A stretch of DNA of 27,243 bases from a virus: positions 1-27,243 of the IMG/VR virus record IMGVR_UViG_3300002231_000719; one strand, 5' to 3'. Numbering within the stretch: the first letter of the stretch is position 1; each line of letters opens with the position of its first letter. Positions 5,978 through 26,648 of the stretch are shown here, in pieces. A model generated the notes under the pieces. It was not told the DNA's origin. It saw only the letters and a program-made list of their open reading frames with translations, and made no database searches. The position numbers and the translations under genes were made by a program.

Positions 5978-6309
5978 TGCTCCCTGCCTTTCTCCAGCGC
6001 GAATAGCTTCCACAGCCGGTCGTCCTCAATTGTATTCGTCGCCGGGTTCGTGACAAAGAACTTCCTGCTCCCGAACGTAATCTTGTCTCCAGCCGCAAGC
6101 CCCGGGTCGTGGTCATAGTAGATGGTATGACTAATCTCTGAGTCAAACTGCCCAGCCACCATCCGGTCATTCGCCGTCGCTGGCTGAATAAAGCACGTAT
6201 GCACCGCCCCCGATGTCTGCGTTGGCGAGATGCTACCTGCCGTGCCGGTCGTTTCCGACTTTGTGAAATGTTGCACCGCGTGTCGGCTACAAAGTGATGA
6301 TATACTCAT
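5974..6309 (-). CDS. head closure protein (SPP1 gp16-like)
   Basis: A 111-residue protein with the short beta-barrel pattern of phage head closure or head-tail joining proteins: T-C-F-I-Q-P followed by an H-T-I-Y-Y-D-H-D-P-G-L-A-A-G-D-K-I segment, then F-G-S-R-K-F-F-V-T-N-P-A-T-N. The G-D-K-I-x-F-G-x-R-x-F-x-V core is typical of the family. It plugs the portal-adaptor channel after DNA packaging. It starts by TAATG overlap with the adaptor gene and ends by ATGA overlap with the gp10-like gene. Length matches the family. Confidence 0.78.
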   Translation of the reverse strand: MSISSLCSRHAVQHFTKSETTGTAGSISPTQTSGAVHTCFIQPATANDRMVAGQFDSEISHTIYYDHDPGLAAGDKITFGSRKFFVTNPATNTIEDDRLWKLFALEKGREQ

Positions 6310-7052
6310 TACATGAACCTCGAATATCTGACGTATGGGCGTAGGTATTTCTTCGCCCTTTTCGGCAACTCGCTGGCCTGCTCGATAGCGTAAGTCACGG
6401 CATAGTCACCCAGCTTCTCTGACTTAACTTCACCGCCGTCCGTCCCCCGCTGAGAAAATGCGTTCTGAATCGCGATGAGCGCCGCCATCTTGATGTCTGC
6501 TGCGATGCCCGCCGTTCGATTCGTTGCGTCGTAGGTTAATTCCGCTTGGCTGTAGCCCGCCGTATAGACGACTTTTACGCTCCGTGGGGTCGCAGGCCAG
6601 TATGACGTCTGGCGGACTAACTTCCCCGACCGCGAGATGCCATCGGCCAGAACGTCTAGCCAGTAGTCATCCCCAGCCGTGAGGTTGTCGCCCGCGAAAT
6701 CGTCTGCCCCCTGGCCGCCCGATGCCCCCTCATCTACATTCACGCTCGTAATGGTACGCACCGGGCGCTCGGGGAGGTAGAGGTATTGGCTTTCGATTAC
6801 GCCGCCCGCCGACATTGCAACTGCATTGTTGCCGCGAACATCCCAAGTACGAATATCTACGTTCGCCCCTCGCCGCCTCTGTTCCGGCAGGTAGTGAGTG
6901 TAAGACACCTGCGGCTCTAAGTTGCAGCCGCAATAGGATTTGATCGCCCGCTCTACCATCGGTTGGATCATGGTGAGGAACGCGGACTCAGCGTCAGTTA
7001 GGGTGCTGCCCTTACCCAAGAAGACAGCGATCTCGGCAACATCCAGTATCAT
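6309..7052 (-). CDS. head-tail connector / adaptor protein (gp6-like)
   Basis: A 247-residue protein with an N-terminal helical region (L-T-D-A-E-S-A-F-L-T-M-I-Q-P-M-V-E-R-A-I-K) typical of gp6-like DNA-packaging adaptors that bind under the portal. It is followed by a strand-rich insert with L-P-E-R-P-V-R-T-I-T-S-V and V-K-V-V-Y-T-A-G-Y, and a C-terminal helix bundle with I-A-A-D-I-K-M-A-A-L. The V-Y-T-A-G-Y motif and the L-P-x-R-P-V segment are characteristic. It heads the connector cluster. Start 7052 has TAGGA upstream. It is somewhat longer than minimal adaptors because of the beta insert. Confidence 0.82.
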   Translation of the reverse strand: MILDVAEIAVFLGKGSTLTDAESAFLTMIQPMVERAIKSYCGCNLEPQVSYTHYLPEQRRRGANVDIRTWDVRGNNAVAMSAGGVIESQYLYLPERPVRTITSVNVDEGASGGQGADDFAGDNLTAGDDYWLDVLADGISRSGKLVRQTSYWPATPRSVKVVYTAGYSQAELTYDATNRTAGIAADIKMAALIAIQNAFSQRGTDGGEVKSEKLGDYAVTYAIEQASELPKRAKKYLRPYVRYSRFM

Positions 7053-11477: not shown

Positions 11478-11609
11478 TTATTTTGTAGCGTATCCTTTGC
11501 CCTTACCGTTACAGATCGGGCAGGGGATAGTTTGCTTTTTCCTCTTGGTTGACTTCACTAGACCTGTCCCGCCGCACTTGCGGCACAGTCCTTTCGTAGG
11601 GGTGCGCAT
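11478..11609 (-). CDS. 43-aa mini-protein with two CXXCXGXG zinc motifs
   Basis: A short frame gives 43 residues starting M-R-T-P-T-K-G-L. It has C-R-K-C-G-G-T-G at residues 9-16 and C-P-I-C-N-G-K-G at 30-37, i.e. two CXXCXGXG repeats as in the zinc-binding domain of DnaJ, separated by a basic linker with K-S-T-K-R-K-K. The four Cys could bind one zinc ion. The ATG lies inside the end of the glycosyltransferase gene (52-base overlap, other frame), with AAAGG about 11 bases upstream, so initiation by coupling is likely. The frame ends 11 bases before the GTG of the membrane protein. The regular motif spacing makes chance unlikely; function is unknown. Confidence 0.65.
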   Translation of the reverse strand: MRTPTKGLCRKCGGTGLVKSTKRKKQTIPCPICNGKGKGYATK

Positions 11610-12550
11610 AATTCAATCAGCCTTTCGCACTGTCGCTCAATGGTATGTTCGCCCATCACCCAACGCCGGGCAATAGTTCCTTGTGCCGCCCTAGCCCCGC
11701 GATCCGCACGCAACTGCTTGATGGCGAGCAGCATTTCAACCGAACTCTCGTAAGTCCGAACGGCGTGCGGATGGTTCGGCATCCCCGGCCAGCGGCGGGC
11801 CAGGACGCAAGCACCCATCCCCAGAGCTAACCAAAACCGATCGCTCGTGTACCCGTCCATATCACTCCGCAGGTTCACGCAGAGAGTTATCGCGGCCCTT
11901 GATGCCAATGCCGGCAGTTCGGCAGGCGGGCACCAAGGCAAGGACAGGCACGCGGTTGGGAAACTCCCCGCCGCGTGACCTGCCCAGGCAACCGCAAACC
12001 CCTCCCCACAAATATCACTGACATCATGCCGCCGTTGACGCCACGCCTTGCTAGTAGTCCCGTACACGAGAACGTCCCACTCCGGTATCTCCCGATGCTC
12101 ACACTTACCTAGCCAGGACGGGCAGCCCTGGTCCAACCATTGGGCGTTGACGCCGAGGTCCCGGTACTCACCGAGTAGCCCTCGCTCCTTGACGAATACC
12201 GCATCCAACGCCCGCATGAGTACCAGGTCGTCAGTGGGTTCCCAAATCTGCTGGGAAGTCCAAGTCTGCAAGCTGCTCTGCTCGGCCAGCGGCTTGTTAG
12301 CTTCAATCGCCAACAGGTCGAACCACCAGGCCACCCACGGGCAAGTTCTCTTTTGCGATAGAGTCACCACGTCAGTACCGTTCACCCCGGCACCCTTGTG
12401 GGCGAAGACGACAAGATCGCATTCGGCATTCGCTAGCTTCTCGACGGTGCGGATAACCTCGACCTCGTGGCCCAGGTTCCGTAGGGCACACGCCACCCAT
12501 CGCATCTTAGGCCAGCGTCGTACGTCGGGATAGACTATGCCAATCCGCAT
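11558..12550 (-). CDS. glycosyltransferase (GT-B, CgeB-like)
   Basis: A 330-residue protein with a Rossmann-like N-terminus (M-R-I-G-I-V-Y-P-D-V) and a GT-B-type donor-site region at about residues 229-257: D-G-Y-T-S-D-R-F-W-L-A-L-G-M-G-A-C-V-L followed by P-G-M. This resembles CgeB and Glyco_trans_1_2 proteins. It would transfer a sugar to a protein, DNA or surface glycan; the acceptor cannot be read. It lies two genes after the capsid gene and just before surface-protein genes, so modification of virion proteins is a reasonable inference. Start 12550 has GGGGGC close upstream. The last 16 codons overlap the zinc mini-protein in another frame. Confidence 0.78.
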   Translation of the reverse strand: MRIGIVYPDVRRWPKMRWVACALRNLGHEVEVIRTVEKLANAECDLVVFAHKGAGVNGTDVVTLSQKRTCPWVAWWFDLLAIEANKPLAEQSSLQTWTSQQIWEPTDDLVLMRALDAVFVKERGLLGEYRDLGVNAQWLDQGCPSWLGKCEHREIPEWDVLVYGTTSKAWRQRRHDVSDICGEGFAVAWAGHAAGSFPTACLSLPWCPPAELPALASRAAITLCVNLRSDMDGYTSDRFWLALGMGACVLARRWPGMPNHPHAVRTYESSVEMLLAIKQLRADRGARAAQGTIARRWVMGEHTIERQCERLIELCAPLRKDCAASAAGQV

Positions 12551-13259: not shown

Positions 13260-14222
13260 TCAGCCGGTCTGGGCACCGTCAGTCATCTTGGCGAAGGCGC
13301 CCGCACGTCGTACGCGCCCACCATAGCGGGCCCGCATTACAAGCAGTTGCGTGTTTTTCAGCGCCAGCGTTTGACCACCGGTTACCATCTCGAATCTCAT
13401 TCCGAGGCGGCGATACATCGTGTACCACGCGAAGTTTCCGAACGCCACCCGCCCGTTGCTGATGTCGTCCTGAATCTTGAATGGGTACCCCAGCGCCACG
13501 TACTGCTGGATATTCGAGCCGTCCTGGCTGAAGAGGCGGCGGTCGTCGCTCGTTGTAATCGGCACAGCACGGACCCGCTTGTACCCCGTGTCCGAGGATA
13601 CGAACGCGTTGCGGTTTCCGCCTTTGCTGTTCCGGTACGCCTTTGACACCTTCCAGGCGAGGTCTTCCATGTCGCCAATGGTGTACGGCCCCGAGGTCCC
13701 GTTCGCTGAGGCGACGCTCAAGAGGCCGCTGGCGGTGAAGATGCCCTCGGGTTCGGTCGTTCCGTCCCCGTTGGCGATCTGGTTGTCCAGCCATTCCTTG
13801 AATGACTCGCCGATGTTCTCGGCAAGGGCTCGCCCGAAATCCATGACGCTGTCGCTTTCCCAGTCACGACCCCATTCGACGCCTGCCGTGGCGGCGAAAA
13901 TGCTGGTGTCGAAGTTCCCGATGAGCGACGCAGTCGATGTCAGGGACAACGCGGTTCCTTCCACATTGCTGCTGCCGTGCCCCGAAAGAATCGGTACCTG
14001 GGCCAGCGTGAAGGCATCCACTTGGCTGGTCTTCGCCTGTTGGAGATCAACCAACGGGAACAATTCGCCGTAGAGCAACGGAACCAGGATAGCGGCTTCG
14101 TCCAACTCTTGCGGGACGCTGTAGCTACCCCCTGAGGTCGCATCGTCGAGTACGGCCTTGGCACTGACGTCGTTGAGTACCGTCCGCATCTCACGGTCGG
14201 TCAACGTCTCATTTTCCTTCAT
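13260..14222 (-). CDS. major capsid protein, HK97 fold
   Basis: A 320-residue protein with the HK97 capsid pattern. T-S-G-G-S-Y-S-V-P-Q-E-L-D near residues 30-42 and then L-Y-G-E-L-F-P-L-V are the classic start of the mature capsid domain. The middle has W-E-S-D-S-V-M-D-F-G-R-A-L-A-E-N, E-W-L-D-N-Q-I-A-N-G-D-G-T and E-P-E-G-I, and the C-terminal part has G-Y-P-F-K-I-Q-D-D-I and T-M-Y-R-R-L-G-M-R-F. Length fits a mature HK97-like shell protein. A longer frame to 14336 is unlike any capsid N-arm. The ATG at 14222 follows GGGGGAACC and overlaps the upstream gene by 14 bases. The upstream gene holds what looks like this protein's own N-terminal domain, one base out of frame. Confidence 0.9.
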   Translation of the reverse strand: MKENETLTDREMRTVLNDVSAKAVLDDATSGGSYSVPQELDEAAILVPLLYGELFPLVDLQQAKTSQVDAFTLAQVPILSGHGSSNVEGTALSLTSTASLIGNFDTSIFAATAGVEWGRDWESDSVMDFGRALAENIGESFKEWLDNQIANGDGTTEPEGIFTASGLLSVASANGTSGPYTIGDMEDLAWKVSKAYRNSKGGNRNAFVSSDTGYKRVRAVPITTSDDRRLFSQDGSNIQQYVALGYPFKIQDDISNGRVAFGNFAWYTMYRRLGMRFEMVTGGQTLALKNTQLLVMRARYGGRVRRAGAFAKMTDGAQTG

Positions 14223-14970
14223 GGTTCCCCCGGTTCGCTTCGCTGCGAAAACCGATTTCACCAGACCACTTGCCCTCATGGATCGCGTGAAGCACGAGGT
14301 CCCGTTCGTGGTCGGGCATCCGCGACAAGTCGCCACGGTAGCCCCACGGCGAGGTGAACTTAGCCCACGCGCCGATAATGGCGTAGTCTTTTTCCGTCGG
14401 CATGTTCAACTCACGCCCCTTGTACCCGTACTCAAGGGCGGGCAGCCCCTTTCTCGGGTGCGGCATATCGCCCTTTCGGCCCAAGTGTTGCGGGCAGATC
14501 GCGGCGGTCTTGGTGTCGCGGTATCGCTCGACAGCCTTCTTTACCCGGACGTTGCCCTTCCCGCTGGCAATGAATGCCATCGAGTCGAACGGTGCCGGTT
14601 GTGCCGGGGCCTGAATCCCCTCCACCGCCTTGGCAACGGCTGCCTCGACGATGGCGTTGACGTCAGCCGAGTCCTTCTCGGGGGCGACTGGCGGGTCGGC
14701 GGGCGTATCGGCCGGCTGCGCTGCCATGCTCGTCGCCAGCTTTTCCAATGCGGCGGCAATCGGGGCGTTCGCTTCGGCCACGGCCGTGCCCACGAGGTCC
14801 GCTAGTTCCTTCTTTTTGTCCGGGGTCGTTTCGGCCAACTTGGCGTACTCCGCATCAGACAGGCTCTTGTCGGCAAGCGCGGTCTCCAACGCTTTCTCGA
14901 ACACTTCGTCCGAGGCGTCGGCGGCCACCCCGCTGTTGGCAATGAGCCATTTCGTTAATCTCTCGTTCAT
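14209..14970 (-). CDS. scaffold / delta-domain protein (likely 5' part of capsid gene)
   Basis: A 253-residue protein. Residues about 10-130 are Ala/Glu/Lys-rich and helical, with a Pro-rich linker (T-P-A-D-P-P-V-A-P), as in the delta scaffolding domain of HK97-type capsid precursors. The C-terminal 70 residues (T-E-K-D-Y-A-I-I-G-A-W-A-K-F, then M-P-D-H-E-R-D-L-V-L-H-A-I-H-E-G-K-W) look like the N-arm that normally lies directly before the capsid domain in one chain. The frame ends TGA 14 bases into the capsid gene. Removing one base near the G5 run at 14227-14231 would fuse the two. The ATG at 14970 has AAGGAGG at ideal spacing, better than a TTG six codons upstream. Confidence 0.75.
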   Translation of the reverse strand: MNERLTKWLIANSGVAADASDEVFEKALETALADKSLSDAEYAKLAETTPDKKKELADLVGTAVAEANAPIAAALEKLATSMAAQPADTPADPPVAPEKDSADVNAIVEAAVAKAVEGIQAPAQPAPFDSMAFIASGKGNVRVKKAVERYRDTKTAAICPQHLGRKGDMPHPRKGLPALEYGYKGRELNMPTEKDYAIIGAWAKFTSPWGYRGDLSRMPDHERDLVLHAIHEGKWSGEIGFRSEANRGNHEGK

Positions 14971-14998
14971 CTCAACACCCTCCTTCAAGGGAAATAGT

Positions 14999-15022: not shown

Positions 15023-17623
15023 TCACAAGTTCAAAAGATCGGCGACTGCCTCGCGTTCGAGGATGGTTCGCCGACCTTGGGTTACGTTGATCGCTTTGCC
15101 TATGTCATCTCGTGTCGCTCGGGCTAAGTAGGCTAGCACGTCACCAATGCCCGTACTCGCCTTACCTTCTTCGTTGTCTTCATTACTAACGGAACTCAGT
15201 ACCGTTGTTAATGCGCCCTTCGCTTGACGGGCAAGAGCTAAGGCAGCACGAGGTACGTTGTCTGTTGCTATGATCGCTTCCACATCTTTAAGTGCATCGG
15301 TGACTCGCTGCTCGTTTGCCTTAGAAAGGGCCCGGCCGGATTTCCCGAGCAGCTTCCTTGCTTCGGTAATGAGCCTATCAGCCTGCAATAGAAACTCGGT
15401 TCGCTCGTCTTCATCCTTGCACTTCCTTGCCTCATCGACATACATGCCAGCCTCGCTGAGCAGTTGGTTAGCATCTGCGGCGGGGATATTGTTGGCAAGG
15501 GGATCGCGGATCGCGGATTTCTGTATGATGTCATCGGCGTGCTTATAGTTGCTTCCCTCAAGCTGTGCTGCGTCAATCAAGTCCCGTTGTTCTTTGATCT
15601 TGCTGAGCGCTTCCGTTAGCGCTTTATCCCATGCTACATCCCCGTCTTCAACGAGCATGCGAGCCAAATTCGCCAACTCGTAAAGGTGGGCCCCGCTGTA
15701 GCCCTCCGTCTCTGTGACCGCTTGCGCTCGTGCCTGCTCGCCAACTTCAGCAATCCATTTGGTGAGCATCTTGCTACGAATGGCTTTGTCCGGCAGATCG
15801 AATTTCAACACATCATGGAATCGACCCGGGCGATCAATCAACGCCTCGGGTAACAGTTCCGGGTAGTTTGTTGTCAGAATCGTTGTGACGCCAGCATGTT
15901 GGGTGATGCCGTCCATTTCCGTCTTGAGTAAGTCAACTGTGTGGCTATTCATCCAGTTGTCCACGTCCTCAACAAATAGGAGCGACGGGGCAAGCTCGCG
16001 GGCCATACTGAATGCCTCCATGAATCCACCGAACGCACCCATGTAATAGAAGTCCCTTGCAGAAACCCAAATGAACGTCGTGTTCGCCTCATTCAACATA
16101 ATGCGACCGGACAAAGTTTTCCCGGTTCCGGGGGGACCCATGAAAATCATGCCGCGATTTGGCGCCTTTGAGCCCTTGGCATTCAATTTATCTACCGCAC
16201 GCTTGATTGGTTTCATGTTCTTGTCACTAAGAAACACGTCAGCCCAACCCGTGTCGCCTCGCGGCAGGAACTCACCGCATAGCGAGAATGCTTCACCCTT
16301 TAGGAAATTGTTCTCTTTCGACCATTGATGCACGTCATAAATCATCTTGCGGTTCAGGGCCTTCTCGTCATGCGACGTGTAGACGATAATCCGAATACCT
16401 TTCCAGGACGGTGCAATGCGGATACACAGCCGCTCTTTGCCACGGCGGCAGAACATGATTCCATGCACAAGGAAATCATCGTTCAATTTGCTGTTGAGTT
16501 GAATAACCTCGTAGTGCGGCGGAGCCTCGTTGCCCTGTTCGGTAATGTTTCGTGTATCGGTAATGGTCCAATCGTGCAGCCAATGCCGAAGGCCCGTCAG
16601 CCAGGTACCCATCCGGGCGCTTGCGATAACGAAGCTCGTGCGGAATAGGTCCTTGACTTCGCAACCGATGAACCGAGCACACCAATCGTATTCCAGCTTA
16701 GACGGCTCAAGGAACTCACTCGTCACTTCAAAATGTTTGCTGAGGGTGCGATTCCACCGCCTCATCTTCTGTGTCGGTGCTCGCCTCTTTAGTTCCGGCG
16801 GCTCCTTATCCATATCCCGAATGTGTTTGGCCGCGTGATTCCAGATAGCTTGCCGCACGCTTTGCGAAGGTTCCGGCTTCAACCCGCCACGGCCCCCGTT
16901 TAGTATCGCGATAACCGCAACGTTCGCTCGGAAATTCGCCTTGCCATTGGCCTCATGGTGTAGAAGCTTGTATCCACCCTTCGTCTCATCATTCTTTTTG
17001 ACCACGACCGCCGTGTATTTTTTCAAGTCCTCAATGTCCATCTCTTTCCGCTCCGCACCCTCATCCCACTCGTTGTCGGTGTCTGCGTTGCCGAAGTCCT
17101 TATATGGGATGCTCTTGTAGGTATCGTCGGTGGCTTTGTCGGTATCGACCGGAACGTCTGGTTCAGTCCCCGGGTCTTGCATGATGATGTCTGTTATCAC
17201 GTGCCCCTCTGCATCTACGTCGAACCCCTTGACGCTAACTATCCTGGCATCATGCAGCGACTTCGCCCAACTCTTCATAGTCGGGTGGAACAGCTTCTCC
17301 CGAGAGAACGCCGTAATGATCGCGTCGGTGTTGCTCGGCACGCTGACCAACGACACTTCAATCATGTCATACTTCGTGATATGGAATCCAAGGAACTCGT
17401 CGGACTTCTTGTCGCGCCGCTCCTCCCACTCTGAAGGAATGAACCCGTGGCTAATCCGTAGCGCGCCGAACTCCACGAGCGTCGCGGCATCGTTCGCCAG
17501 CGCGGTATTGGCAAGTGCGAACCGAGCTTTGACCCGCCTGTTATTCTGGACTAGCACCTCCACTAGCTTGCCGATGGGTTCCCACGGAGTGTGCTGCCAG
17601 AGCAGTGCGAGATTGGTGTCCAC
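15023..17623 (-). CDS. prohead protease C-terminal part fused to AAA+ ATPase
   Basis: An 866-residue open frame. Residues 1-110 are the body of an HK97-type (S78) prohead protease: L-L-W-Q-H with the catalytic His at 11, P-I-G-K at 16-19, R-I-S-H-G-F with the likely nucleophile Ser58, and E-V-S-L-V-S-V-P-S-N at 89-98. Residues about 200-280 carry a domain often found behind such proteases (N-G-G-R-G-G, E-P-P-E-L). Residues about 290-480 are unassigned. A full AAA+ module follows: Walker A GPPGTGKT 496-503, Walker B LLFVEDVD 548-555, sensor 1 T-T-N near 585, arginine-finger region R-P-G-R-F 598-602 and sensor 2 G-Y-S-G-A-H near 641-646. The last 170 residues are helical. The N-terminal part is in another frame upstream, so the GTG at 17623 is not a true start. 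Confidence 0.82.
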   Translation of the reverse strand: MDTNLALLWQHTPWEPIGKLVEVLVQNNRRVKARFALANTALANDAATLVEFGALRISHGFIPSEWEERRDKKSDEFLGFHITKYDMIEVSLVSVPSNTDAIITAFSREKLFHPTMKSWAKSLHDARIVSVKGFDVDAEGHVITDIIMQDPGTEPDVPVDTDKATDDTYKSIPYKDFGNADTDNEWDEGAERKEMDIEDLKKYTAVVVKKNDETKGGYKLLHHEANGKANFRANVAVIAILNGGRGGLKPEPSQSVRQAIWNHAAKHIRDMDKEPPELKRRAPTQKMRRWNRTLSKHFEVTSEFLEPSKLEYDWCARFIGCEVKDLFRTSFVIASARMGTWLTGLRHWLHDWTITDTRNITEQGNEAPPHYEVIQLNSKLNDDFLVHGIMFCRRGKERLCIRIAPSWKGIRIIVYTSHDEKALNRKMIYDVHQWSKENNFLKGEAFSLCGEFLPRGDTGWADVFLSDKNMKPIKRAVDKLNAKGSKAPNRGMIFMGPPGTGKTLSGRIMLNEANTTFIWVSARDFYYMGAFGGFMEAFSMARELAPSLLFVEDVDNWMNSHTVDLLKTEMDGITQHAGVTTILTTNYPELLPEALIDRPGRFHDVLKFDLPDKAIRSKMLTKWIAEVGEQARAQAVTETEGYSGAHLYELANLARMLVEDGDVAWDKALTEALSKIKEQRDLIDAAQLEGSNYKHADDIIQKSAIRDPLANNIPAADANQLLSEAGMYVDEARKCKDEDERTEFLLQADRLITEARKLLGKSGRALSKANEQRVTDALKDVEAIIATDNVPRAALALARQAKGALTTVLSSVSNEDNEEGKASTGIGDVLAYLARATRDDIGKAINVTQGRRTILEREAVADLLNL

Positions 17624-18050
17624 GGCCGTCGCCCTTCGGTTCTAACACGTCGCGGTCCCGGTCCTCGCTATTGCTGGTCACTACGGCATCGAACTCTAAT
17701 ATCGAACCCTCCACCGGGGTCCGCTTCTTCTTGAGTTGCAAAACGTGAAGCATCTCGCCGCTCGGGGACTTGAACGGCACTACGTCAAACCCAACCCCCG
17801 CTTCCTTGCCAGTCATTTGATTCACGTCGATGTCAACCGGCCGCATGTCCGGATCGCAGAACGTCAGTTGCCGCTCGGCTTCCGACAATGCCTTCTGCCA
17901 CTTCGCTTCGGACATCGAGCCCTTGACCGCGCTCTCGATCTGCCGGAGGTAGACAGCAGCAGTTCCGATCCCCCAACGGTCACGCGTCTTGCCTAACGCA
18001 TCGGATTGGTTGCGCTCTGCCAACCTAGTGAAGATGTCAGTGAGGTCCAT
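17541..18050 (-). CDS. N-terminal part of prohead protease-ATPase, frame-broken
   Basis: The frame starts at ATG 18050 behind GGAGG. About 115 unassigned residues precede E-G-S-I-L-E-F-D-A-V-V-T, then S-E-D-R-D-R-D-V-L-E-P-K-G, the first conserved block of HK97-type prohead proteases (x-D-R-D-x-D-V). After that block the frame turns into nonsense, while the next conserved block (L-L-W-Q-H) continues one base away in the frame of the 866-residue gene. Removing one base near the GGG at 17632-17634 restores a protein of about 1000 residues. The true boundary is near 17635; sequence down to 17541 is out-of-frame read-through. It lies directly after the box-plus-hairpin element at 18064-18119. Confidence 0.75.
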   Translation of the reverse strand: MDLTDIFTRLAERNQSDALGKTRDRWGIGTAAVYLRQIESAVKGSMSEAKWQKALSEAERQLTFCDPDMRPVDIDVNQMTGKEAGVGFDVVPFKSPSGEMLHVLQLKKKRTPVEGSILEFDAVVTSNSEDRDRDVLEPKGDGRGHQSRTALAAHSVGTHRQASGGASPE

Positions 18051-18358: not shown

Positions 18359-18434
18359 TTATTTGCTGATCACCGAGACCGTCGTGCAACGACAATTTGC
18401 CCGTTCCTTGGCCGGCAGCCCGAAGTAGCCCGGA
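18359..18434 (-). pseudogene. out-of-frame C-terminal end of the MuF domain
   Basis: In another frame than the portal reading, this segment encodes Y-P-G-Y-F-G-L-P-A-K-E-R-A-N-C-R-C-T-T and ends TAA at 18359. The N-C-R-C motif is the standard end of MuF domains, so this is the true C-terminus. Between 18482 and 18435 a third frame gives V-T-D-D-F-N-V-G-G-F-P, which also suits the family. Two single-base removals, or one single-base addition, reconnect the protein. Confidence 0.75.
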
Positions 18435-20685
18435 TACGGACGCCGGGAACCCCCCCACGTTGAAGTCGTCCGTCACTGGTTATTCTTTTGCCATTCAACG
18501 GGGCCCGATGCGTGTCCCGCGTGTTTCCGTCGATAATACTCACCCATTCCTTTTGCTCTATTAGGCCATCGTCGAATAGCCCAGTTTGGGTAGCTTGGTG
18601 TCCAGCATTCAATGCTCCTGTCGTTTCTGTGCGAGCGATCATCTTAGCCCGGACGACATTCCGTACCATGCCCAGGACCCCTTCCTCGGCGCCCGGTACA
18701 GTCGGAGCCACGCCGATCCGCACGCTCAATTCGTGCAGGCTTTCCCCGTTCGCAATCCCCTCATTGATCGTGGCCGCAAGCTGCTGTCGCGTGGTCTCGT
18801 GAATATCCTGCCAGTACGGCCGGGACATGATCGTGTCCACTTCCGCCCGGACGTAGCCAGCGACCTCAGGCGGCAGTTCCATCAGCGGGTCAAGCGCCTT
18901 GCCCGTTGCCTGGTCAACAAGAATCTGTTCGTCAAGGGCTCCGCGTACCGCCAGCGTTAGAACCTCTGGGGCCAACGCCTTTCCCCAAATCTCGTACCAG
19001 TCAGCCGGGTGGAACAATAGATCAACAAGCCCTTCCGTCGGCGACTTGGACCGCTCGAACATCTCACGCAGGTTGGCTATGACCGACTTGCGTTGCTGCT
19101 CAAACAACCCCTCTACAATCTTGGCAAACGCCATCTCTGCCTTTGTCTGCACCTTAAGCCACACGACTTCAGCGGCCCTCGCCATGGATTTCCGAGACAT
19201 ACCCTTCGCCTTGCCGCCCATCTTGCTGGCCTGGGGGATAAGCGGTTCGAGTGCTTCAGCCAATCCCACGTAGACGTTCTGGCCGTCCTCAAGCGGTGGC
19301 AGATGAGCCGAACCGCGAAGCGTCGCCCGCATTTCGTCACGGTTGATCGCCTTCCCCTTCACGAGAGTCTCCACGTCCTTTCTGGTTTCCTCTCTGTCTT
19401 CCGGTTCGTATGGGTCGATCCAAAGGAACAGCTTCTCGTTGCCCTTCGCCAACCGTGGGGCAACGAACGCCGTCAATATCTGACTGATGAGTTCGATCTT
19501 GGGATTGATGGTGAAATTTGCAAAATGGTGTCTCGCCATCGCTGACGCCGCCCGGCTGCCCGGCTCCGATTCGCCGATGATGTACCCGCTAGTGCCGAAC
19601 CCAGTGAGGATTCGCTTCTTCGTAATCTCCCCCGAGTTCTGGAAATCCATCTCATGCGGCTTGTTGCCGAGTTCCTTCACGTCTCGGAGCAAGCGGTCGA
19701 GGATAATCGGCTCGCCCGCCTGCATGGTGCCGCCGTACATTTGCTTCAGTAGGCTAAATAGCTCATCCCGCTGCCACTGCTCCATGAGCGGCCGCCCCAT
19801 ACTATCGCCGTCCGGGTCTTCAATATCCCCGGCAATGAACGCATAACGCGGCCAAATGCTATTCTCCATGATCCGGTGCTGCGCCTGCTGGATCAACTCG
19901 TCGGTGAGAATTGCCCGGGCTTGGGCTCCGAGTGGTGATACCGCCCCGAGTAGGTCGGCCGGATTGCAGTAGTGAATTGGTACGACCTCATCGCCCGGCA
20001 CCTCGATCGGCTCACCCGTGCCACCCGGCTTGACAGCCCATTGTGCGAATGCCTTTGGGTTTCCTTCCTTGTCCTTGTGTATCGGCGACACCCACGACGT
20101 TGGGAGCGGCCACACTACCCGCCGCCCATCGGCGAACGTCAACCACAAATGGCTCCAACCGGTCAGTTCTAGCGAGCCGATCATAGAGTACAGCAATTGC
20201 CATGTGACCATTAGGGGGTTGGGGTTCCGCAGCACATCAAGTAACGGGTGCTGAGAAAATAGTTCCAACCCCTCCGCCGGCCGCTTGAGTTGCTGGGCCA
20301 CGAACTTAGGTACAAGGTACGTGCCTTGACCGGGGACTGCTAGTAGGTCTTCCCGCGCTGCATTCTTTCGGAGCTTGCCGCAAACCGAGTCGGCCGACTT
20401 GGCACCGCCAGGCATCTTGGCCAGCATGAACGATTGCCCGGCGACGGTCTGTGCTATCGGTCGAATCGCCGCGAAGGGCCAGCCGACGAACTTGCTCTCC
20501 TGCTCCGCGTGGTCACGGGACTGCCTCCACTTGTCAAGGAAATGCTCGTTACTGCCGATCCCGATGCCACCCGCCCCGAGGCCTGCCATAGGATCAGGAG
20601 CCATCATCGCCTCGGCCTTGAACCTACTGATGGCCGCCGCCGCAACTCCCGCTTCCTCTCGGCTCGCCGTATCGATGAGCGTCAT
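18370..20685 (-). CDS. portal protein fused to MuF-like head domain
   Basis: A 771-residue product. The N-terminal 450 residues are a phage portal: Y-L-V-P near 120, L-L-Y-S-M-I-G-S-L-E-L-T-G-W near 160-175, V-P-G-D-E-V-V-P-I-H-Y near 230-240, a helical stem region, and R-I-L-T-G-F-G-T-S-G-Y-I-I-G-E-S. A long helical linker leads to a C-terminal MuF (SPP1 gp7-like) domain: A-R-T-E-T-T-G-A-L-N-A-G-H near 685-697 and W-V-S-I-I-D-G-N-T-R-D-T-H near 715-728. The portal forms the DNA entry ring; MuF domains are minor capsid proteins ejected or retained with it. The last 35 residues as read are out of frame. Start 20685 overlaps the upstream stop as ATGA and has GGGGGAGA. Confidence 0.9.
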   Translation of the reverse strand: MTLIDTASREEAGVAAAAISRFKAEAMMAPDPMAGLGAGGIGIGSNEHFLDKWRQSRDHAEQESKFVGWPFAAIRPIAQTVAGQSFMLAKMPGGAKSADSVCGKLRKNAAREDLLAVPGQGTYLVPKFVAQQLKRPAEGLELFSQHPLLDVLRNPNPLMVTWQLLYSMIGSLELTGWSHLWLTFADGRRVVWPLPTSWVSPIHKDKEGNPKAFAQWAVKPGGTGEPIEVPGDEVVPIHYCNPADLLGAVSPLGAQARAILTDELIQQAQHRIMENSIWPRYAFIAGDIEDPDGDSMGRPLMEQWQRDELFSLLKQMYGGTMQAGEPIILDRLLRDVKELGNKPHEMDFQNSGEITKKRILTGFGTSGYIIGESEPGSRAASAMARHHFANFTINPKIELISQILTAFVAPRLAKGNEKLFLWIDPYEPEDREETRKDVETLVKGKAINRDEMRATLRGSAHLPPLEDGQNVYVGLAEALEPLIPQASKMGGKAKGMSRKSMARAAEVVWLKVQTKAEMAFAKIVEGLFEQQRKSVIANLREMFERSKSPTEGLVDLLFHPADWYEIWGKALAPEVLTLAVRGALDEQILVDQATGKALDPLMELPPEVAGYVRAEVDTIMSRPYWQDIHETTRQQLAATINEGIANGESLHELSVRIGVAPTVPGAEEGVLGMVRNVVRAKMIARTETTGALNAGHQATQTGLFDDGLIEQKEWVSIIDGNTRDTHRAPLNGKRITSDGRLQRGGVPGVRIRATSGCRPRNGQIVVARRSR

Positions 20686-21487: not shown

Positions 21488-21729
21488 TGGCAAGCCCGGG
21501 CCAACCACCCAAACGTAAGTCGCTATTGCGGCAAGCACAATCGGAACCCCCGACCGGTCGTTTCGCCTGGTTCCGCTCGCTATCCACTGAACTGCAAGGG
21601 GAATTGCTGGAACTGAAGGAGGCTCACCAGCGCGGAGCAATGCAGCATACTGTTCGCGGCTTATGGGAGATCGCGAGTCGGAACGGGGTCAAGGTCAGCC
21701 TGGAAGCCTTTACGCATTGGATGAAATGA
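21487..21729 (+). CDS. hypothetical 80-aa protein, HTH-like
   Basis: An 80-residue protein starting at ATG 21487, overlapping the previous stop as TAATG, with GGGGGAA as ribosome binding site. The N-terminus is basic and Pro-rich. It then has W-F-R-S-L-S-T-E-L-Q-G-E-L-L-E-L-K and a helical second half (G-L-W-E-I-A-S-R-N-G-V-K-V-S-L-E-A-F) that resembles a helix-turn-helix. Such proteins occur near terminase genes in phages and could be a small terminase subunit or a regulator. The cassette lies next to terminase but on the other strand, so this stays a suggestion. Its stop overlaps the next start as TGATG. Confidence 0.6.
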   Translation: MASPGQPPKRKSLLRQAQSEPPTGRFAWFRSLSTELQGELLELKEAHQRGAMQHTVRGLWEIASRNGVKVSLEAFTHWMK

Positions 21730-22835
21730 TGGCAAAGCGCACCCTCAAAGAGCAAGCCGAAGATGCCCGCCGCGTTGAGTCACTCATGGCAACGATCAAG
21801 ACGCTGCAAGCGGATAAGCGGCGGTTGAATAAACGGATCGGGAACTGGGACCGACTTGTGGACGCATTTACGGCGCGCGTCCCCACGCTACCGACACCTA
21901 AGCGAATCCGGCTGACCGCACGACCAAGCAAGGGCACGCAAGAAGTGGTCGCTCTTCTGTCCGACACTCACGCCACCGAGTTCTGGACGCGGAGCCAGAC
22001 GGACGGTCACACTGAGTACAACTTCGAGATTTTCTGCGAGCATCTTCACTATTACGGCCAAGAAATCGTGCGCGTAACGCAAGAGGACCGAGGCAAGTTT
22101 GGCCTGAAGCATCTCCACGTCGATATGTTAGGTGACATTTTCCAGGGCGTCTTGCGAGTCGAAGATGAAGTAACGAACGAATTTCCTACCGTGCTGGGGT
22201 TGATTCACACGGGGTGGGTTCTCTGGCAATGGCTGGTGGCCCTGTCGGAGCATTTCGATACCGTTACTGTCACGGGCATGGCAGGCAACCATGGCAGGCT
22301 GCACCAGAAACCGCAGGCCAAGAGATACACGGCGGAAAACCGCGACACGCTCTTGTATCTGACGTTGCAGAAATATGCCGCCGTAGCTGGCCTCACTGAT
22401 AGAATCAAAGTGCGAGTACCGGGCTCGCGTGTACACACGCTTTCCCGATTGGGGCATCGCATTAAGCTGGGGCACGGTGATCACGTTAGGGGCGGCAACT
22501 CTATCGCTGGCCTGCCAATTTACGGATTGTCGCGGGAGATGTTACGGCAGTTCCGTAAGGAATTGCACGACGATCGGCGGCGCGGTGGCATCGCGTTAAT
22601 TGAGTACGGACACTGGCACCAGTATTCGTTTCTGGAAAATATGCTCATCATCAACGGGGCCCTCTGCCCAACAGACCCCTATGCGTTCGATCAGTTAGGC
22701 GCGCTAGCCGACCCTACCCAATTAGTGTATTACACCTCGCGCAAGCACGCCATTGGGTGGCGGTGTCCATTCTCGCTGAAGTGGGGTGCCGGGCAATCGC
22801 ACCCCTTCCAATATGATAGAGAGGCTTTGACATGA
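21729..22835 (+). CDS. calcineurin-like metallophosphoesterase
   Basis: A 368-residue protein. A coiled-coil N-terminus (about 1-50) precedes a full metallophosphoesterase set: S-D-T-H with Asp79 and His81, L-G-D-I-F-Q near 134-139, G-N-H-G-R at 186-190, L-G-H-G-D near 247-251 and G-H-W-H at 294-297. These bind the two metal ions and the phosphate. The substrate is unknown; phage relatives act on nucleotides, RNA ends or DNA ends. ATG 21729 (or 21726) overlaps the upstream stop, and a frame extending to 21663 runs into the previous gene and is rejected. The stop overlaps the next start as ATGA, so it is part of the rightward operon. Confidence 0.85.
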   Translation: MAKRTLKEQAEDARRVESLMATIKTLQADKRRLNKRIGNWDRLVDAFTARVPTLPTPKRIRLTARPSKGTQEVVALLSDTHATEFWTRSQTDGHTEYNFEIFCEHLHYYGQEIVRVTQEDRGKFGLKHLHVDMLGDIFQGVLRVEDEVTNEFPTVLGLIHTGWVLWQWLVALSEHFDTVTVTGMAGNHGRLHQKPQAKRYTAENRDTLLYLTLQKYAAVAGLTDRIKVRVPGSRVHTLSRLGHRIKLGHGDHVRGGNSIAGLPIYGLSREMLRQFRKELHDDRRRGGIALIEYGHWHQYSFLENMLIINGALCPTDPYAFDQLGALADPTQLVYYTSRKHAIGWRCPFSLKWGAGQSHPFQYDREALT

Positions 22836-23362
22836 GTGACAACCCGCTAGATCGACAAGTCGGCGGCGGCCATTACACGAAGTACCGAATCCAGCCAAAG
22901 CAATTCTACCACGCCAACAAAGTTCCAGCCTTGGAGTCGCAGGCGATAGACTATATCCTACGGCATGGTGACAAGGGTGGCGAGGAAGACTTGCACAAGG
23001 CTATCCATATCCTGGAAATCCTCATCTACCTGGAATACACCTGCGCCGAGCCTCGCCCCTCAAAGCGGGAACCAACGCAGACTACCTTGCCCCAAACCAA
23101 CTTAACCGTTCGCCAAGGGCAGGAACCGGGCGAACGCTCGCTATTGCACATCCTGCAAACGACGTTCGACCGCCATGAGTTCGACAAGGAAAAAAACAAT
23201 GCAGGTGACATTGTTGAGGCGTTACGTGCCGACAGGGAACATGCGACGGCCGACTGGATTGTCGGCTACCTATCACAGAATCAAATGAACGACAGCGTTT
23301 GGCTTCAATCTCTTTTCGATTGTCTATCAGGGGGGCCAGAATGCAAGGAATGTGGGGGCTAA
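22832..23362 (+). CDS. DUF3310-domain protein
   Basis: A 176-residue protein. The N-terminal 70 residues are a DUF3310 domain: Q-V-G-G-G-H-Y-T, I-Q-P-K-Q-F-Y-H-A-N, then D-Y-I-L-R-H-G-D-K-G-G-E-E-D-L-H-K-A-I-H. This domain is common in phage early regions and is related to T7 gp1.7, a nucleotide kinase. The linker is Thr/Pro/Gln-rich, and the C-terminal 70 residues form a separate acidic helical part (I-V-E-A-L-R-A-D-R-E-H-A-T-A-D-W-I-V-G-Y) ending in C-K-E-C. The start overlaps the phosphoesterase stop as ATGA. A nucleotide-metabolism role is inferred from the family. Confidence 0.82.
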   Translation: MSDNPLDRQVGGGHYTKYRIQPKQFYHANKVPALESQAIDYILRHGDKGGEEDLHKAIHILEILIYLEYTCAEPRPSKREPTQTTLPQTNLTVRQGQEPGERSLLHILQTTFDRHEFDKEKNNAGDIVEALRADREHATADWIVGYLSQNQMNDSVWLQSLFDCLSGGPECKECGG

Positions 23363-23727
23363 TCCTACTGGCTGCGATCGCGGCCGAACCCGAACCAACC
23401 ACCGTCTGCCTAACCCAACTGTGGGAATTCTATGACTACGACGACGAGTACCAAGACGAAACCGGCAGCTACGCCGAATTGGTGACATGGGCGTGGACGG
23501 TCGAGGTCAAGCAAGACATCCCCGGTAGCGAGTTGGCGGGCTGGCGGTACGTCGGCTTCATTCAGCTAACGCGCATCCTCTGGTACGATAACGATGAGGA
23601 AGAGGCTACGGCGTGCTGGCGAACTGAGGGCGGGAAATGCGGCACTACGGGCACGGCCGAGGATGCCGCCGGGAAAATCCTCAAGCTCTCTGGCTACCCT
23701 GGGGATTTTGATATTCACTGGCGCTGA
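23341..23727 (+). CDS. exported acidic protein with signal peptide
   Basis: A 128-residue protein starting at ATG 23341 with AGGGGGG upstream and overlapping the previous gene by 22 bases. The N-terminus (M-Q-G-M-W-G-L-I-L-L-A-A-I-A-A-E) looks like a short signal peptide with cleavage near A-I-A. The mature part is very acidic (Y-D-Y-D-D-E-Y-Q-D-E), rich in Trp and Tyr, with a few Cys. Exported proteins are unusual in phage early operons, and superinfection exclusion or another periplasmic role is possible but not shown. A start at 23299 adds 14 basic residues before the hydrophobic core and is less likely. No family is recognised. Confidence 0.6.
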   Translation: MQGMWGLILLAAIAAEPEPTTVCLTQLWEFYDYDDEYQDETGSYAELVTWAWTVEVKQDIPGSELAGWRYVGFIQLTRILWYDNDEEEATACWRTEGGKCGTTGTAEDAAGKILKLSGYPGDFDIHWR

Positions 23728-23738
23728 GCGGGTATAAT
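23708..23738 (+). promoter_or_regulatory. promoter for a leaderless methyltransferase mRNA
   Basis: TTGATA at 23708-23713 and TATAAT at 23733-23738, 19 bases apart. The predicted start, about seven bases after the -10, falls on the A of the ATG at 23745, so the transcript would be leaderless. No clear ribosome binding site lies before this ATG. The 8-base GGTATAAT is identical to that at 21088-21095. Confidence 0.5.
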
Positions 23739-23744
23739 AACACC

Positions 23745-24953
23745 ATGAAATGCTACCGCTGTAATTGCTGGCCGTGCGAGTGCAAGGATGGGTGTACGAT
23801 CATTCACGGGGACTGCCGAGAGATTGCCCCGCAGCTATCGGGATTCACGGCTTGCGTGACAGACCCGCCGTATGAACTCGGCTTCATGGGGAAACAGTGG
23901 GATAAGGCGGGCGTGGCGTTCGACCCGGCGACGTGGAAGGCGATTATGGCCCCTTGCGTCCCCGGTGCCCACCTACTGGCGTTTGGCGGCACTCGTACCT
24001 TCCACCGGCTAGTATGTGCCGTGGAAGATGCTGGGTGGCAGATTAGGGATGCGGTGGCATACCTATGGGGGCAGGGAACAGGATTTCCAAAAAGTTTGGA
24101 CGTATCGACAGCGATCGACAAGGCGGCGGGGGTGGAGAGGGAGGTTATAGGGTACAAGCCAAGCGATAGGCCGAACCGTGTTGGCAGACAGGGTGGGAGT
24201 ATGCGTGGAGCCGAAACGCGAGCGGTTGACACCGCCCCTGCCACCCCCGAGGCCCAAAAGTGGGACGGTTGGGGCACTGCCCTGAAACCAGCCATCGAAC
24301 CCATCACCCTTGCTAGGAAGCCGTTGCGTGGGACCGTAGCGGCGAACTGCTTGGAACATGGGGCCGGAGCGTTGAATGTGGATGGGTGTAGGGTGGGGAC
24401 TAACCCAGGCTATAAATATCGGGCAGACGCAAACGGGACAACCTTCCACGGGCAACAAGGTGAGCGAATTAAGCAGACCGCTGAAAAAAAAGGCGCAAAG
24501 TTTATTGAATCCACTCAGGGCCGCTGGCCGGCCAATCTCATAACGGACGGCAGCGAGGAAGTGGTGGGGCTGTTTCCGGAGAGCGACGCGGGGCAACCGC
24601 ACGCTCTCCCGCGAACACGCGAAAGGCAATCGGGGTTTTGTTTGACATCCGGCAAGGGGCCCATCGGCGATTCCGGCTCTGCCGCCCGATTTTTCTATTG
24701 CGCTAAAGCGAGCCGACAGGAACGCGGCAAGGGCAACACACACGCCACGGTTAAGCCCCTCGCCCTAATGAGCTACCTCTGCAAGCTACTCGCCTCGCCG
24801 GGCTACACCGGCGCATTACTCGACCCGTTCATGGGGAGTGGTTCAACGCTCTTAGCGGCAACCAAGTGGTTTGAGCGGGTGGTAGGAATTGAAGCGGAAG
24901 AACAGTATTGTGAGATCGCAGCGGAAAGGTTGCGTCAAGGAGTGCTGTTGTAA
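23745..24953 (+). CDS. site-specific DNA methyltransferase, beta class
   Basis: A 402-residue amino-methyltransferase. Catalytic motif IV, DPPY at 40-43, comes first. A long central region with target-recognition character follows, and then the SAM-binding motif I D-P-F-M-G-S-G-S-T at about 360-368 with V-K-P-L-A-L-M before it. The order IV, recognition, I is that of beta-class N6-adenine or N4-cytosine enzymes. The N-terminus is a Cys cluster (C-Y-R-C-N-C-W-P-C-E-C near 3-13) that may hold zinc. No restriction gene is adjacent, so it is probably an orphan enzyme protecting phage DNA. It has its own promoter-like element and no clear ribosome binding site, and it ends the rightward cassette. 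Confidence 0.88.
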   Translation: MKCYRCNCWPCECKDGCTIIHGDCREIAPQLSGFTACVTDPPYELGFMGKQWDKAGVAFDPATWKAIMAPCVPGAHLLAFGGTRTFHRLVCAVEDAGWQIRDAVAYLWGQGTGFPKSLDVSTAIDKAAGVEREVIGYKPSDRPNRVGRQGGSMRGAETRAVDTAPATPEAQKWDGWGTALKPAIEPITLARKPLRGTVAANCLEHGAGALNVDGCRVGTNPGYKYRADANGTTFHGQQGERIKQTAEKKGAKFIESTQGRWPANLITDGSEEVVGLFPESDAGQPHALPRTRERQSGFCLTSGKGPIGDSGSAARFFYCAKASRQERGKGNTHATVKPLALMSYLCKLLASPGYTGALLDPFMGSGSTLLAATKWFERVVGIEAEEQYCEIAAERLRQGVLL

Positions 24954-25009: not shown

Positions 25010-25192
25010 CTAGCCCTTCTTCCCGAGCACCCGTTCCCGCAGCTTACCCCGCCACGCGTCGCGCCTAGCTTTCTCGTCTTCCGGCAACGCGGCTTCCTCT
25101 GCCTTTTGCTGTGCCTGCGGCCGTTCAATTAGGGACTGCCTTGCTACCGGGCGCAGCCGGCCGGGGCCGAAGATAGCGTAGTTGGCGAGCAC
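25010..25192 (-). pseudogene. out-of-frame C-terminal end of large terminase
   Basis: This frame, open upstream to about 25240, reads S-I-K-G-I-L-G-R-S-P-D-R-A-D-A-V-V-L and then A-N-Y-A-I-F-G-P-G-R-L, ending in a charged tail and TAG at 25010. G-R-S-P-D-R-A-D is the conserved last motif of terminase large subunits and supplies the third catalytic Asp of the nuclease. It lies one base out of frame with the main terminase frame and must be its true C-terminus. A start at 25192 is an artefact of the break. Confidence 0.8.
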
Positions 25193-26648
25193 AACCGCGT
25201 CGGCCCTGTCTGGGGATCGGCCGAGTATACCCTTGATACTTGGTGCTTTCGAGTTCGGCTTGGGGGTCTTTCCGCATTATCAACAACCGTCCTTGGTCGT
25301 CCTGAATCGGCAGGCACGTCAACTCTTCGCGTAACTGGTGCTCTCGTAACGGGATGGAAAAGAAGCGTTCGTGAACGTCCCGGCCCTCGGCATCTACAAT
25401 CTTTGACCAACGGTTCTGGTCCATCGCCTGCCGCAGTCGCCAGTACATCTCGGCCCGGCAGTTCTTATACGTCTTGCTATCAACAGCCGCCCCACCAAAG
25501 GCAATAGCCCGCACCATGTAGCCTTGGTTCCGTAGTAGGTCGGCGTACTGCTTGCCGCCCGCGCCTCGGTCAAACGCCACCCGCCCGGGCGACACGTTGT
25601 ACTCGTCCATGATCTTCAATGTCTCTGGCACAATCACGGCCGTGTTCGGCGTGTCCATTACCTTGATCTGAAATAAACCGAACCTGTCAACCAGCGCCCA
25701 GCATGAGAAATCTCGACCGCCCTCGGCAACATCGACGCCAAGCCCAAACGGACCGCGCGCCAACTCTGTGGCAACTTCATACATTTCCTCGCATCGGTCT
25801 AACCAGTCGGCGGGGAACATCATCGACTTGCCGCTTGTGTCGAACTTGCCGTGCAACCGCTGAAGCTTCCATAACGGCTCACGAGTAGCGACGTGGTGCC
25901 GGTACTTAGACCAAGAGAGCATGCCGGGGATCGGTTGCGGCGGCGTCCCCTTCCCCCCGGCCTTCGCCCACTTCCTGCCAGCTTTGATGTTCGCGGTATC
26001 GTCGGCATCAACGTGTATCACCTTGCGGAAGAGCTTGGTGGGATCATCCGGGTCTGCCAAGTCGCCACGCTGACAGAAGTGATAGAACCAGTTGGTTGTC
26101 GAGAGTGGGTTGCCGATACCAAGGATGCGATCCGCAAAGCTAACGGCCCCGTCATAGAACTCGTCTGCTATCAAGCTGGCCTCATCGAATAGCACGAACA
26201 CGCGCGGGATGTCGGCGTTCTCATGTACCCCCTGGAAATTCTCCACGTCGTTGGTTGTAAAGAACTTCGCAAAATGATCATCGTAAGGCCGCTTAGTCAC
26301 GGGGTCCATCACGCGAAGGTTGCGGTGCTTGACGTGCAGCCCGAGCGGCACTACGGCATTGCGGATAAGCTTGGTCACTTCCGGCCACAGTGCGATTTCA
26401 AGCTGTTTCGTTGACGAACTGCTAGCAATGATGCGAGCGGGGAACCGGGTAGTGATGAACCAAAGAACGGAGAGTGCGGCGGATCGGGTTTTGCCCAGCG
26501 TGTTGCCGGTATGACAAAGAGTTTCCGGTACGTCGGCAACTGACTGGAGGATGGCCGCTTGATGTTTGTCAAGCATCATAGTCGGCCAGAAGTAGGTCGC
26601 CCAACCAAGCGGGTCGCGTGCCCAGGCTTTGAGTTCCGTAGGGGTCAT
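25125..26648 (-). CDS. terL: terminase large subunit
   Basis: As read, 507 residues, of which about the first 470 are genuine. The ATPase domain has a variant Walker A G-N-T-L-G-K-T at 48-54 and Walker B F-V-L-F-D-E-A-S at 151-158. The RNase H-like nuclease has G-V-D-V-A-E-G-G-R-D with Asp306 and V-A-F-D-R-G-A-G-G-K-Q with Asp360. The third nuclease motif lies one frame away downstream; the last 30-40 residues here (after E-S-T-K) are nonsense. The enzyme cuts and pumps DNA into the prohead through the portal. Start 26648 has little ribosome binding site. It converges on the methyltransferase gene with no terminator visible between. Confidence 0.92.
   Translation of the reverse strand: MTPTELKAWARDPLGWATYFWPTMMLDKHQAAILQSVADVPETLCHTGNTLGKTRSAALSVLWFITTRFPARIIASSSSTKQLEIALWPEVTKLIRNAVVPLGLHVKHRNLRVMDPVTKRPYDDHFAKFFTTNDVENFQGVHENADIPRVFVLFDEASLIADEFYDGAVSFADRILGIGNPLSTTNWFYHFCQRGDLADPDDPTKLFRKVIHVDADDTANIKAGRKWAKAGGKGTPPQPIPGMLSWSKYRHHVATREPLWKLQRLHGKFDTSGKSMMFPADWLDRCEEMYEVATELARGPFGLGVDVAEGGRDFSCWALVDRFGLFQIKVMDTPNTAVIVPETLKIMDEYNVSPGRVAFDRGAGGKQYADLLRNQGYMVRAIAFGGAAVDSKTYKNCRAEMYWRLRQAMDQNRWSKIVDAEGRDVHERFFSIPLREHQLREELTCLPIQDDQGRLLIMRKDPQAELESTKYQGYTRPIPRQGRRGCARQLRYLRPRPAAPGSKAVPN

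What the first reader, a model, noticed from the sequence alone, without database searches (positions are those of the whole stretch)
15023..18050. HK97-type prohead protease fused to a complete AAA+ ATPase
After repair of one frame break, a single chain of about 1000 residues carries an S78-type prohead protease and, some 400 residues later, an intact AAA+ module (Walker A 496-503, Walker B 548-555, R-P-G-R-F 598-602 of the downstream frame). Prohead proteases normally end after 200-250 residues. A AAA+ engine tied to the capsid protease could unfold or extract scaffold domains during maturation, similar in logic to FtsH or Lon but with an unrelated peptidase. The region at about 290-480 between the two is unassigned and could be the substrate adaptor. 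The fusion itself is seen; the mechanism is inference.
Basis: partly seen in the sequence, partly recalled or inferred. Interest (0 to 1): 0.85.

Follow-up and report, generated by a model that had tools for sequence, protein, structure and literature searches.

The report
Phage capsid protease with built-in AAA+ motor
A large group of uncultured bacterial viruses carries the enzyme that matures the virus shell in the same protein chain as an ATP-burning ring-type motor, a combination we found in no cultured virus and no paper, which suggests that shell maturation in these viruses is powered or timed by ATP.

Summary
Window 15023-18050 (- strand) codes one ~1000-residue protein, broken by a single frame break at ~17,631-17,635. 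It carries a Peptidase_S78 prohead protease and a complete AAA+ ATPase. The fusion is not an artefact: 84 clusters of viral contigs (<90% identical) carry the same AAA+ plus a new middle domain. In 73 the protease is in the same uninterrupted ORF (2 of these: AAA+, protease and major capsid protein in one ~1100-residue chain), in 7 it is the adjacent gene, and 4 are undecidable. A search seeded only by the middle domain gave 60/60 loci with AAA+ in the same ORF and protease in the same (58) or neighbouring (2) ORF. Protease His/Ser/Glu are kept in 81/82; Walker A/B, sensor 1 and two arginines in 84/84. Portal lies upstream, capsid gene downstream. Structure comparison puts middle+AAA+ closest to YjoB and Bcs1, not FtsH or Lon, and no pore-loop aromatic is conserved. 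I favour a Bcs1/YjoB-like, ATP-driven remodeller of the capsid precursor coupled to the protease, over a threading unfoldase. No relative was found among 50,697 phage records or in papers searched. Mechanism is inference.

The parts
17631..18050 (-). N-terminal part of the gene: helical N-terminus and first strands of the protease (up to '...VVTSNSEDRDRDVLEPKG')
   Evidence: ATG at 18050 with GGAGG upstream; L013 residues 18-109 align here in frame -2
17631..17635 (-). approximate place of the single frame break
   Evidence: switch of frame in tblastn with intact relative L013; intact single-ORF relatives exist
17306..17614 (-). S78 prohead protease core; catalytic-type His (LLWQH, 17605-17591), Ser (RISHGF, 17458-17441), Glu (EVSLVSVP, 17359-17336)
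   Evidence: Pfam PF04586 E=5.7e-11; PHROG head maturation protease E=2.6e-14; positions; conserved 81/82 in family
16778..17110 (-). linker with a mobile accessory domain, found after the AAA+ in L017 and here before it
   Evidence: 40% identity to L017 residues 744-853, E=2e-18
16169..16738 (-). middle domain, conserved, no Pfam family; Bcs1/YjoB-like by fold
   Evidence: family alignment A8 of 83 members, no Pfam hit; Foldseek to YjoB/Bcs1 over ~400 columns
15551..16159 (-). AAA+ ATPase core and lid: Walker A 16138-16115, Walker B 15982-15959, sensor-1 N at 15868-15866, RPGRF 15832-15818
   Evidence: Pfam PF00004 E=1.7e-20; positions; invariant in 84/84
15023..15550 (-). variable C-terminal tail
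   Evidence: no family match; variable in length among relatives
13260..14988 (-). HK97-type major capsid protein with N-terminal extension, itself split by a frame break (14209-14988 and 13260-14336)
   Evidence: PF05065 E=1.3e-23; L013 capsid protein aligns in two frames
18370..20685 (-). portal protein with Mu-F-like C-terminal domain
   Evidence: PF04860 E=1.9e-28, PF04233 E=3e-8
25125..26648 (-). terminase large subunit
   Evidence: phrog_2 E=1.1e-19

Best explanation
SHOWN: this is a head-maturation (S78) protease joined in one chain to a conserved Bcs1/YjoB-like middle domain and an intact AAA+ ATPase, encoded between portal and major capsid protein, and it represents a large family in uncultured tailed phages. 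INFERRED: the AAA+ halves assemble a ring, with the middle domain as its substrate chamber, that binds the capsid precursor (most likely the N-terminal extension of the capsid protein). By concerted, ATP-driven shape changes, as in Bcs1, rather than by threading, the ring remodels or gates that region. This couples assembly and timing to cleavage by the attached protease. The whole chain, or a fragment after self-cleavage, would act inside or at the wall of the procapsid.
For: Fusion: for the window; intact ORFs of 743 aa (L005), 830 (L013), 983 (L017) and 901 (L018). Family: 84 clusters, of which 71 protease-N-terminal, 2 AAA+-protease-capsid, 7 split but adjacent, 4 undecidable. Independent retrieval by the middle domain: 60/60 with AAA+ in the ORF, protease in the same ORF in 58 and the next ORF in 2. 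Active-site conservation. Capsid gene downstream with a 90-305 residue N-terminal extension in 57 of 61. Triple fusions L084 and L067/L069 put the AAA+ on the protease-capsid precursor itself; L084 and L067 are not sisters on the tree, which suggests repeated joining. AAA+ and protease distances are correlated (r=0.44, no permutation reaches it). Model of L005 protein: pLDDT >90 over protease and middle+AAA+. Foldseek's best matches are YjoB and Bcs1 over ~400-420 columns, against ~245 for FtsH. No conserved aromatic in pore loop 1: at most 29/84 at any loop position, 20/84 at the hydrophobic position. No transmembrane-like stretch. The Bcs1 mechanism (folded substrate, concerted cycle) is from PMC10567702 and PMC12219900.
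Against: No oligomer, ATPase activity or substrate has been shown for any member. The closest cultured protease-capsid fusions (e.g. PAJU2, 45% identical to the L084 half) do the job without an AAA+, so the motor is not needed for this reaction in general. The structural match to YjoB has 8.4 A rmsd over two domains (TM 0.54 by target length), so it shows domain folds, not the same arrangement. By sequence alone the AAA+ core scores best with CDC48, PAN and FtsH, and the middle domain finds nothing in PDB or Pfam. Protease and capsid co-vary more tightly (r=0.84) than AAA+ and capsid (0.47), so the AAA+ may be exchanged between head modules.
Confidence: 0.45

Rival explanations
1. Classical ATP-fuelled unfoldase-protease (works like FtsH, Lon, ClpXP): the AAA+ ring threads scaffold or N-terminal domains of the capsid protein through its pore into the attached S78 protease.
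For: Same chain carries AAA+ and protease; AAA+ core is closest by sequence to CDC48, PAN and FtsH; all ATPase residues intact.
Against: No aromatic is conserved in pore loop 1 and the loop is deleted in several members; whole ATPase half matches Bcs1/YjoB best; in 7 clusters protease and AAA+ are separate chains; the linker varies from 39 to 327 residues, which does not suggest a fixed coaxial chamber.
Confidence: 0.22
2. Dedicated assembly chaperone: the AAA+ folds or delivers the capsid protein, as a Bcs1/YjoB-like chaperone might, and the protease is joined only to co-produce and co-package the two.
For: Bcs1/YjoB-like fold; triple fusion with the capsid protein; separate adjacent genes in 7 clusters.
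Against: Does not explain why the joint partner is nearly always the protease (73 of 80 decidable clusters) rather than the capsid protein alone.
Confidence: 0.15
3. Zymogen lock or organiser: the AAA+ ring holds the protease inactive until nucleotide state or procapsid closure releases it.
For: Order and linker vary, but a cis link is nearly always kept.
Against: Other S78 proteases are timed without an ATPase; no direct evidence.
Confidence: 0.1
4. The AAA+ is cargo: the protease domain carries it into the procapsid, it is cut free, and it is ejected with the DNA to act in the next host cell.
For: Some members have very long extra tails (2035 aa in L138) or a DNA-ligase domain next to the AAA+ (L086, 1814 aa).
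Against: Split and AAA+-first arrangements put the AAA+ outside a protease-led cargo layout; its permanent place beside the capsid gene and the triple fusion point to head assembly.
Confidence: 0.06
5. Artefact: mis-assembly or a chance run-on of two genes.
For: The window copy has a frame break, and so has its capsid gene.
Against: Intact single ORFs in dozens of independent contigs, with invariant active sites.
Confidence: 0.01

Closest known systems
S78 (HK97-type, PF04586) prohead proteases
   Same: Fold, catalytic His/Ser, gene place between portal and major capsid protein
   Different: Followed in the same chain by a middle domain and an AAA+ ATPase; total length 676-2035 aa
Prohead protease-major capsid fusions (phrog_617; PAJU2 ORF003; NF045541)
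   Same: L084 and L067 contain this fusion; the L084 half is ~45% identical to PAJU2-type proteins, in the same gene order; S78-capsid fusions are described in PMC6563490
   Different: L084/L067 add a complete AAA+ in front; the window type has the AAA+ behind the protease and a separate capsid gene
Bcs1 (mitochondrial, heptameric) and YjoB (Bacillus) AAA ATPases
   Same: Best PDB matches of the middle+AAA+ half; E-D Walker B (84/84); no conserved pore-loop aromatic
   Different: No transmembrane helix, no Bcs1 N-terminal Pfam domain, joined to a protease, in phage head operons
FtsH, Lon, ClpXP, IetA-type ATPase/protease pairs
   Same: ATPase and peptidase in one machine; AAA+ core similarity
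   Different: Peptidase is the unrelated S78 capsid protease; no zinc or Lon peptidase; no pore-loop aromatic; scores far below the curated cut-offs (e.g. FtsH 79 against 600)
Standalone phage AAA ATPases (e.g. Stenotrophomonas phage ANB28, PA5oct)
   Same: AAA+ core, 24-33% identity
   Different: No protease. Of those whose neighbourhood I looked at (ANB28, NatCom_11578), neither is beside annotated head genes

Membership tests
S78 prohead protease (PF04586) | Profile match above curated cut-off | tested here: met
   43.3 bits against 21 for the window, 37.8 for L013, 24.5 for L005; some divergent members fall below the cut-off (L018 18.5; L017 no match)
S78 prohead protease (PF04586) | Catalytic-type His and Ser conserved | tested here: met
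   81/82 each, plus Glu 81/82
S78 prohead protease (PF04586) | Encoded next to portal and HK97-type capsid gene | tested here: met
S78 prohead protease (PF04586) | Cleaves the capsid protein's N-terminal (delta) domain in the procapsid | not testable with these tools
   substrate-like N-terminal extension present in 57/61 neighbours; cleavage itself not testable
Classical AAA ATPase (PF00004) | Walker A, Walker B, sensor 1, arginine fingers | tested here: met
   invariant in 84/84 clusters
Bcs1/YjoB family | Bcs1-type domain before the AAA core (fold) | tested here: inconclusive
   Foldseek top matches YjoB/Bcs1 over 390-424 columns, E 2e-17 to 8e-16, but rmsd 8-14 A; no sequence match to PDB or Pfam
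Bcs1/YjoB family | Transmembrane helix (Bcs1) | tested here: not met
   no 19-residue window above 1.8 on the Kyte-Doolittle scale in the window or 73 representatives
Bcs1/YjoB family | Heptamer or hexamer with substrate chamber | not testable with these tools
   only single-chain models could be made
Energy-dependent AAA+ proteases (FtsH/Lon type) | Family peptidase domain (zinc M41 or Lon S16) | tested here: not met
   only S78 found in Pfam scans
Energy-dependent AAA+ proteases (FtsH/Lon type) | Aromatic pore loop 1 for threading | tested here: not met
   no loop position has an aromatic in more than 29/84; loop deleted in some members
Protease-capsid fusion (phrog_617) | S78 and HK97-fold capsid protein in one chain | tested here: not met
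   not in the window (separate capsid gene); met by L084

The most novel reading that the evidence does not exclude
An energy-dependent capsid-maturation machine: in a large, uncultured group of tailed phages, removal of the capsid protein's internal domain is powered or timed by a Bcs1/YjoB-like AAA+ ring built into the prohead protease, and in some into the capsid protein precursor itself.
Probability: 0.5. Interest if true: 0.88.

Novelty: new variant of a known kind. Interest (0 to 1): 0.78.

Why it matters
To my knowledge, prohead maturation proteases are treated as ATP-independent enzymes timed by assembly. A conserved protease-ATPase chain, sometimes fused to the capsid protein as well, would add an ATP-driven step to HK97-type head maturation. 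It would also extend Bcs1-like ATPases, known for moving folded proteins, into virus assembly. The family is large, has intact compact members (743 aa), and makes the question directly testable in a two-gene expression system.

Tried and rejected
Chance or mis-assembly: rejected by dozens of intact relatives. FtsH/Lon membership: rejected (no family peptidase, no pore-loop aromatic). Search of bacterial genomes: two scans of genome contigs found nothing, but the automatic patterns were narrow, so absence from prophages is not shown. The genome search 'relatives' is not available for a virus record. Plasmid search gave only generic AAA+ hits. First structure model from 7 sequences was poor (pLDDT 53) and was replaced by one from 83 (pLDDT 85). 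L009/L010, found with the protease half, are protease-capsid fusions without AAA+. L020-L024 and L008 are unrelated P-loop proteins. Middle-domain profile against PDB and Pfam: no match. Ten literature searches found no description of this fusion; only open-licence papers are held, so prior description elsewhere is possible.

Full report
What is in the window. The window is part of a 29,256-base virus record. Its structural genes run on the - strand: terminase 25125-26648, portal with Mu-F-like tail 18370-20685, the finding at 18050-15023, the major capsid protein at 14988-13260, a head-tail adaptor at 6309-7052 and a tape measure protein at 919-3117. The ORF 15023-17623 (866 codons) matches Peptidase_S78 at 4-106 (E=6e-11) and AAA at 492-609 (E=2e-20). 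The first ~140 residues lie in another frame, starting at ATG 18050 with GGAGG upstream. The intact relative L013 aligns to both parts and places one frame break at ~17,631-17,635.

The fusion is a family. The first scan of viral contigs found four near-identical relatives with one intact 743-aa ORF, in the order terminase, portal, two small ORFs, protease-AAA+, capsid. An alignment of the ATPase part found intact fusions of 830, 983 and 901 aa in unrelated contigs, two of them 97-99 kb. Two motif-centred scans gave 187 and 119 confirmed stretches (80 kept each). With HMMs built from these, I found 84 clusters (AAA+ domain below 90% identity; median pairwise identity 50%, minimum 36%) that carry the same middle domain. 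In 71 the protease is N-terminal of the AAA+ in the same ORF. In 2 the order is AAA+, protease, capsid protein. In 7 the protease is the adjacent gene. In 4 a frame break or contig end prevents a decision. As a test not seeded by AAA+ motifs, a scan with a 28-residue piece of the middle domain gave 60 loci: all had AAA+ in the same ORF, 58 had the protease in the same ORF and 2 in the neighbouring ORF. Many of these contigs are the same as before, so this is a check of retrieval bias, not 60 new cases.

Both halves look active. Protease His, Ser and Glu are kept in 81 of 82; Walker A Lys/Thr, Walker B Glu-Asp, sensor-1 Asn and both arginines of the RPGR motif in 84 of 84. Protease distances and AAA+ distances are correlated (r=0.44 over 73 fused representatives, best of 2000 permutations 0.13).

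Triple fusion and repeated joining. L084 (1100 aa) matches AAA at 229-346, S78 at 497-607 and Phage_capsid at 828-1090. Its protease-capsid half is 45% identical to the known protease-capsid fusion of Pseudomonas phage PAJU2, in the same gene order, where no AAA+ is annotated beside it. L067 and L069 have the same layout by sequence and by the protease profile. On the tree of middle+AAA+ domains L084 and L067 each sit beside members with the usual order, and the state (order/split) changes at least 7 times. Protease and capsid co-vary more tightly (r=0.84) than AAA+ and capsid (0.47). Together this suggests that the AAA+ has been joined to head proteases more than once, which is stronger evidence of a working partnership than one inherited fusion; the tree has many weak forks, so the count is approximate.

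What the ATPase is. The model of the L005 protein from 83 sequences has pLDDT above 90 over protease and middle+AAA+. The rmsd over both domains is 8-14 A, so I read this as the same domain folds in a different relative pose. By sequence the AAA+ core is closest to CDC48, PAN and FtsH, and the middle domain has no match in Pfam or PDB. Pore loop 1 has no conserved aromatic, and it is shortened in L037, L064, L077 and L103. There is no transmembrane-like stretch. Bcs1 moves a folded protein by concerted ring motions rather than hand-over-hand threading (PMC10567702, PMC12219900).

Mechanism. The partner genes and the capsid protein's N-terminal extension (90-305 residues in 57 of 61 neighbours) point to the capsid precursor as substrate. 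I favour a Bcs1/YjoB-like ring that remodels or gates the precursor and couples this to the attached protease (0.45), over a threading unfoldase (0.22), a plain assembly chaperone (0.15), a protease lock (0.10) and an ejected cargo (0.06). Shown: identity of domains, one chain, conservation, gene context. Inferred: ring, substrate, ATP dependence and location in the procapsid.

Novelty. No record among 50,697 phages covers 80% of any of five queries; AAA+ hits are 24-35% identical standalone ATPases or cellular FtsH/CDC48-like genes, and protease hits are ordinary proteases or protease-capsid fusions. Ten literature searches found S78 proteases beside or fused to the capsid protein (PMC6563490) but no AAA+ fusion. 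The parts are known kinds; the combination, its spread and its coupling to head maturation are new as far as I could test.

Noticed in passing
window 13260-14988 (-): The major capsid gene is split in two frames as well (L013 capsid protein aligns in frame -1 over 14988-14251 and frame -2 over 14267-13311), so this contig has at least two frame breaks in adjacent essential genes.
   Followed up: partly
L084:2699-6001; L067:1010-4306; L069:7068-10346: AAA+, S78 protease and HK97-type capsid protein in one ~1100-residue ORF.
   Followed up: partly
L086:361-5805: 1814-aa ORF carries an ATP-dependent DNA ligase domain (PF01068, residues 633-818) and the Bcs1-like AAA+ module; the protease is the next gene.
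   Followed up: no
L138:5964-12071: 2035-aa member with a long repetitive C-terminal tail after the AAA+; no separate capsid gene recognised downstream in the stretch held.
   Followed up: no
window 11558-12550 (-): Glycosyltransferase-like ORF (PF13524, E=3e-13) inside the structural gene block, between capsid and tail genes.
   Followed up: no
window 21663-24953 (+): Exonuclease, a short nucleotide-kinase-like ORF and a DNA methyltransferase on the opposite strand between portal and terminase.
   Followed up: no
window 16778-17110 (-): Accessory domain between protease and middle domain that in L017 lies after the AAA+ (residues 744-853, 40% identity): a mobile domain of unknown role.
   Followed up: no
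L009, L010: Protease-capsid fusions (685-687 aa) without AAA+ in other uncultured phages.
   Followed up: no
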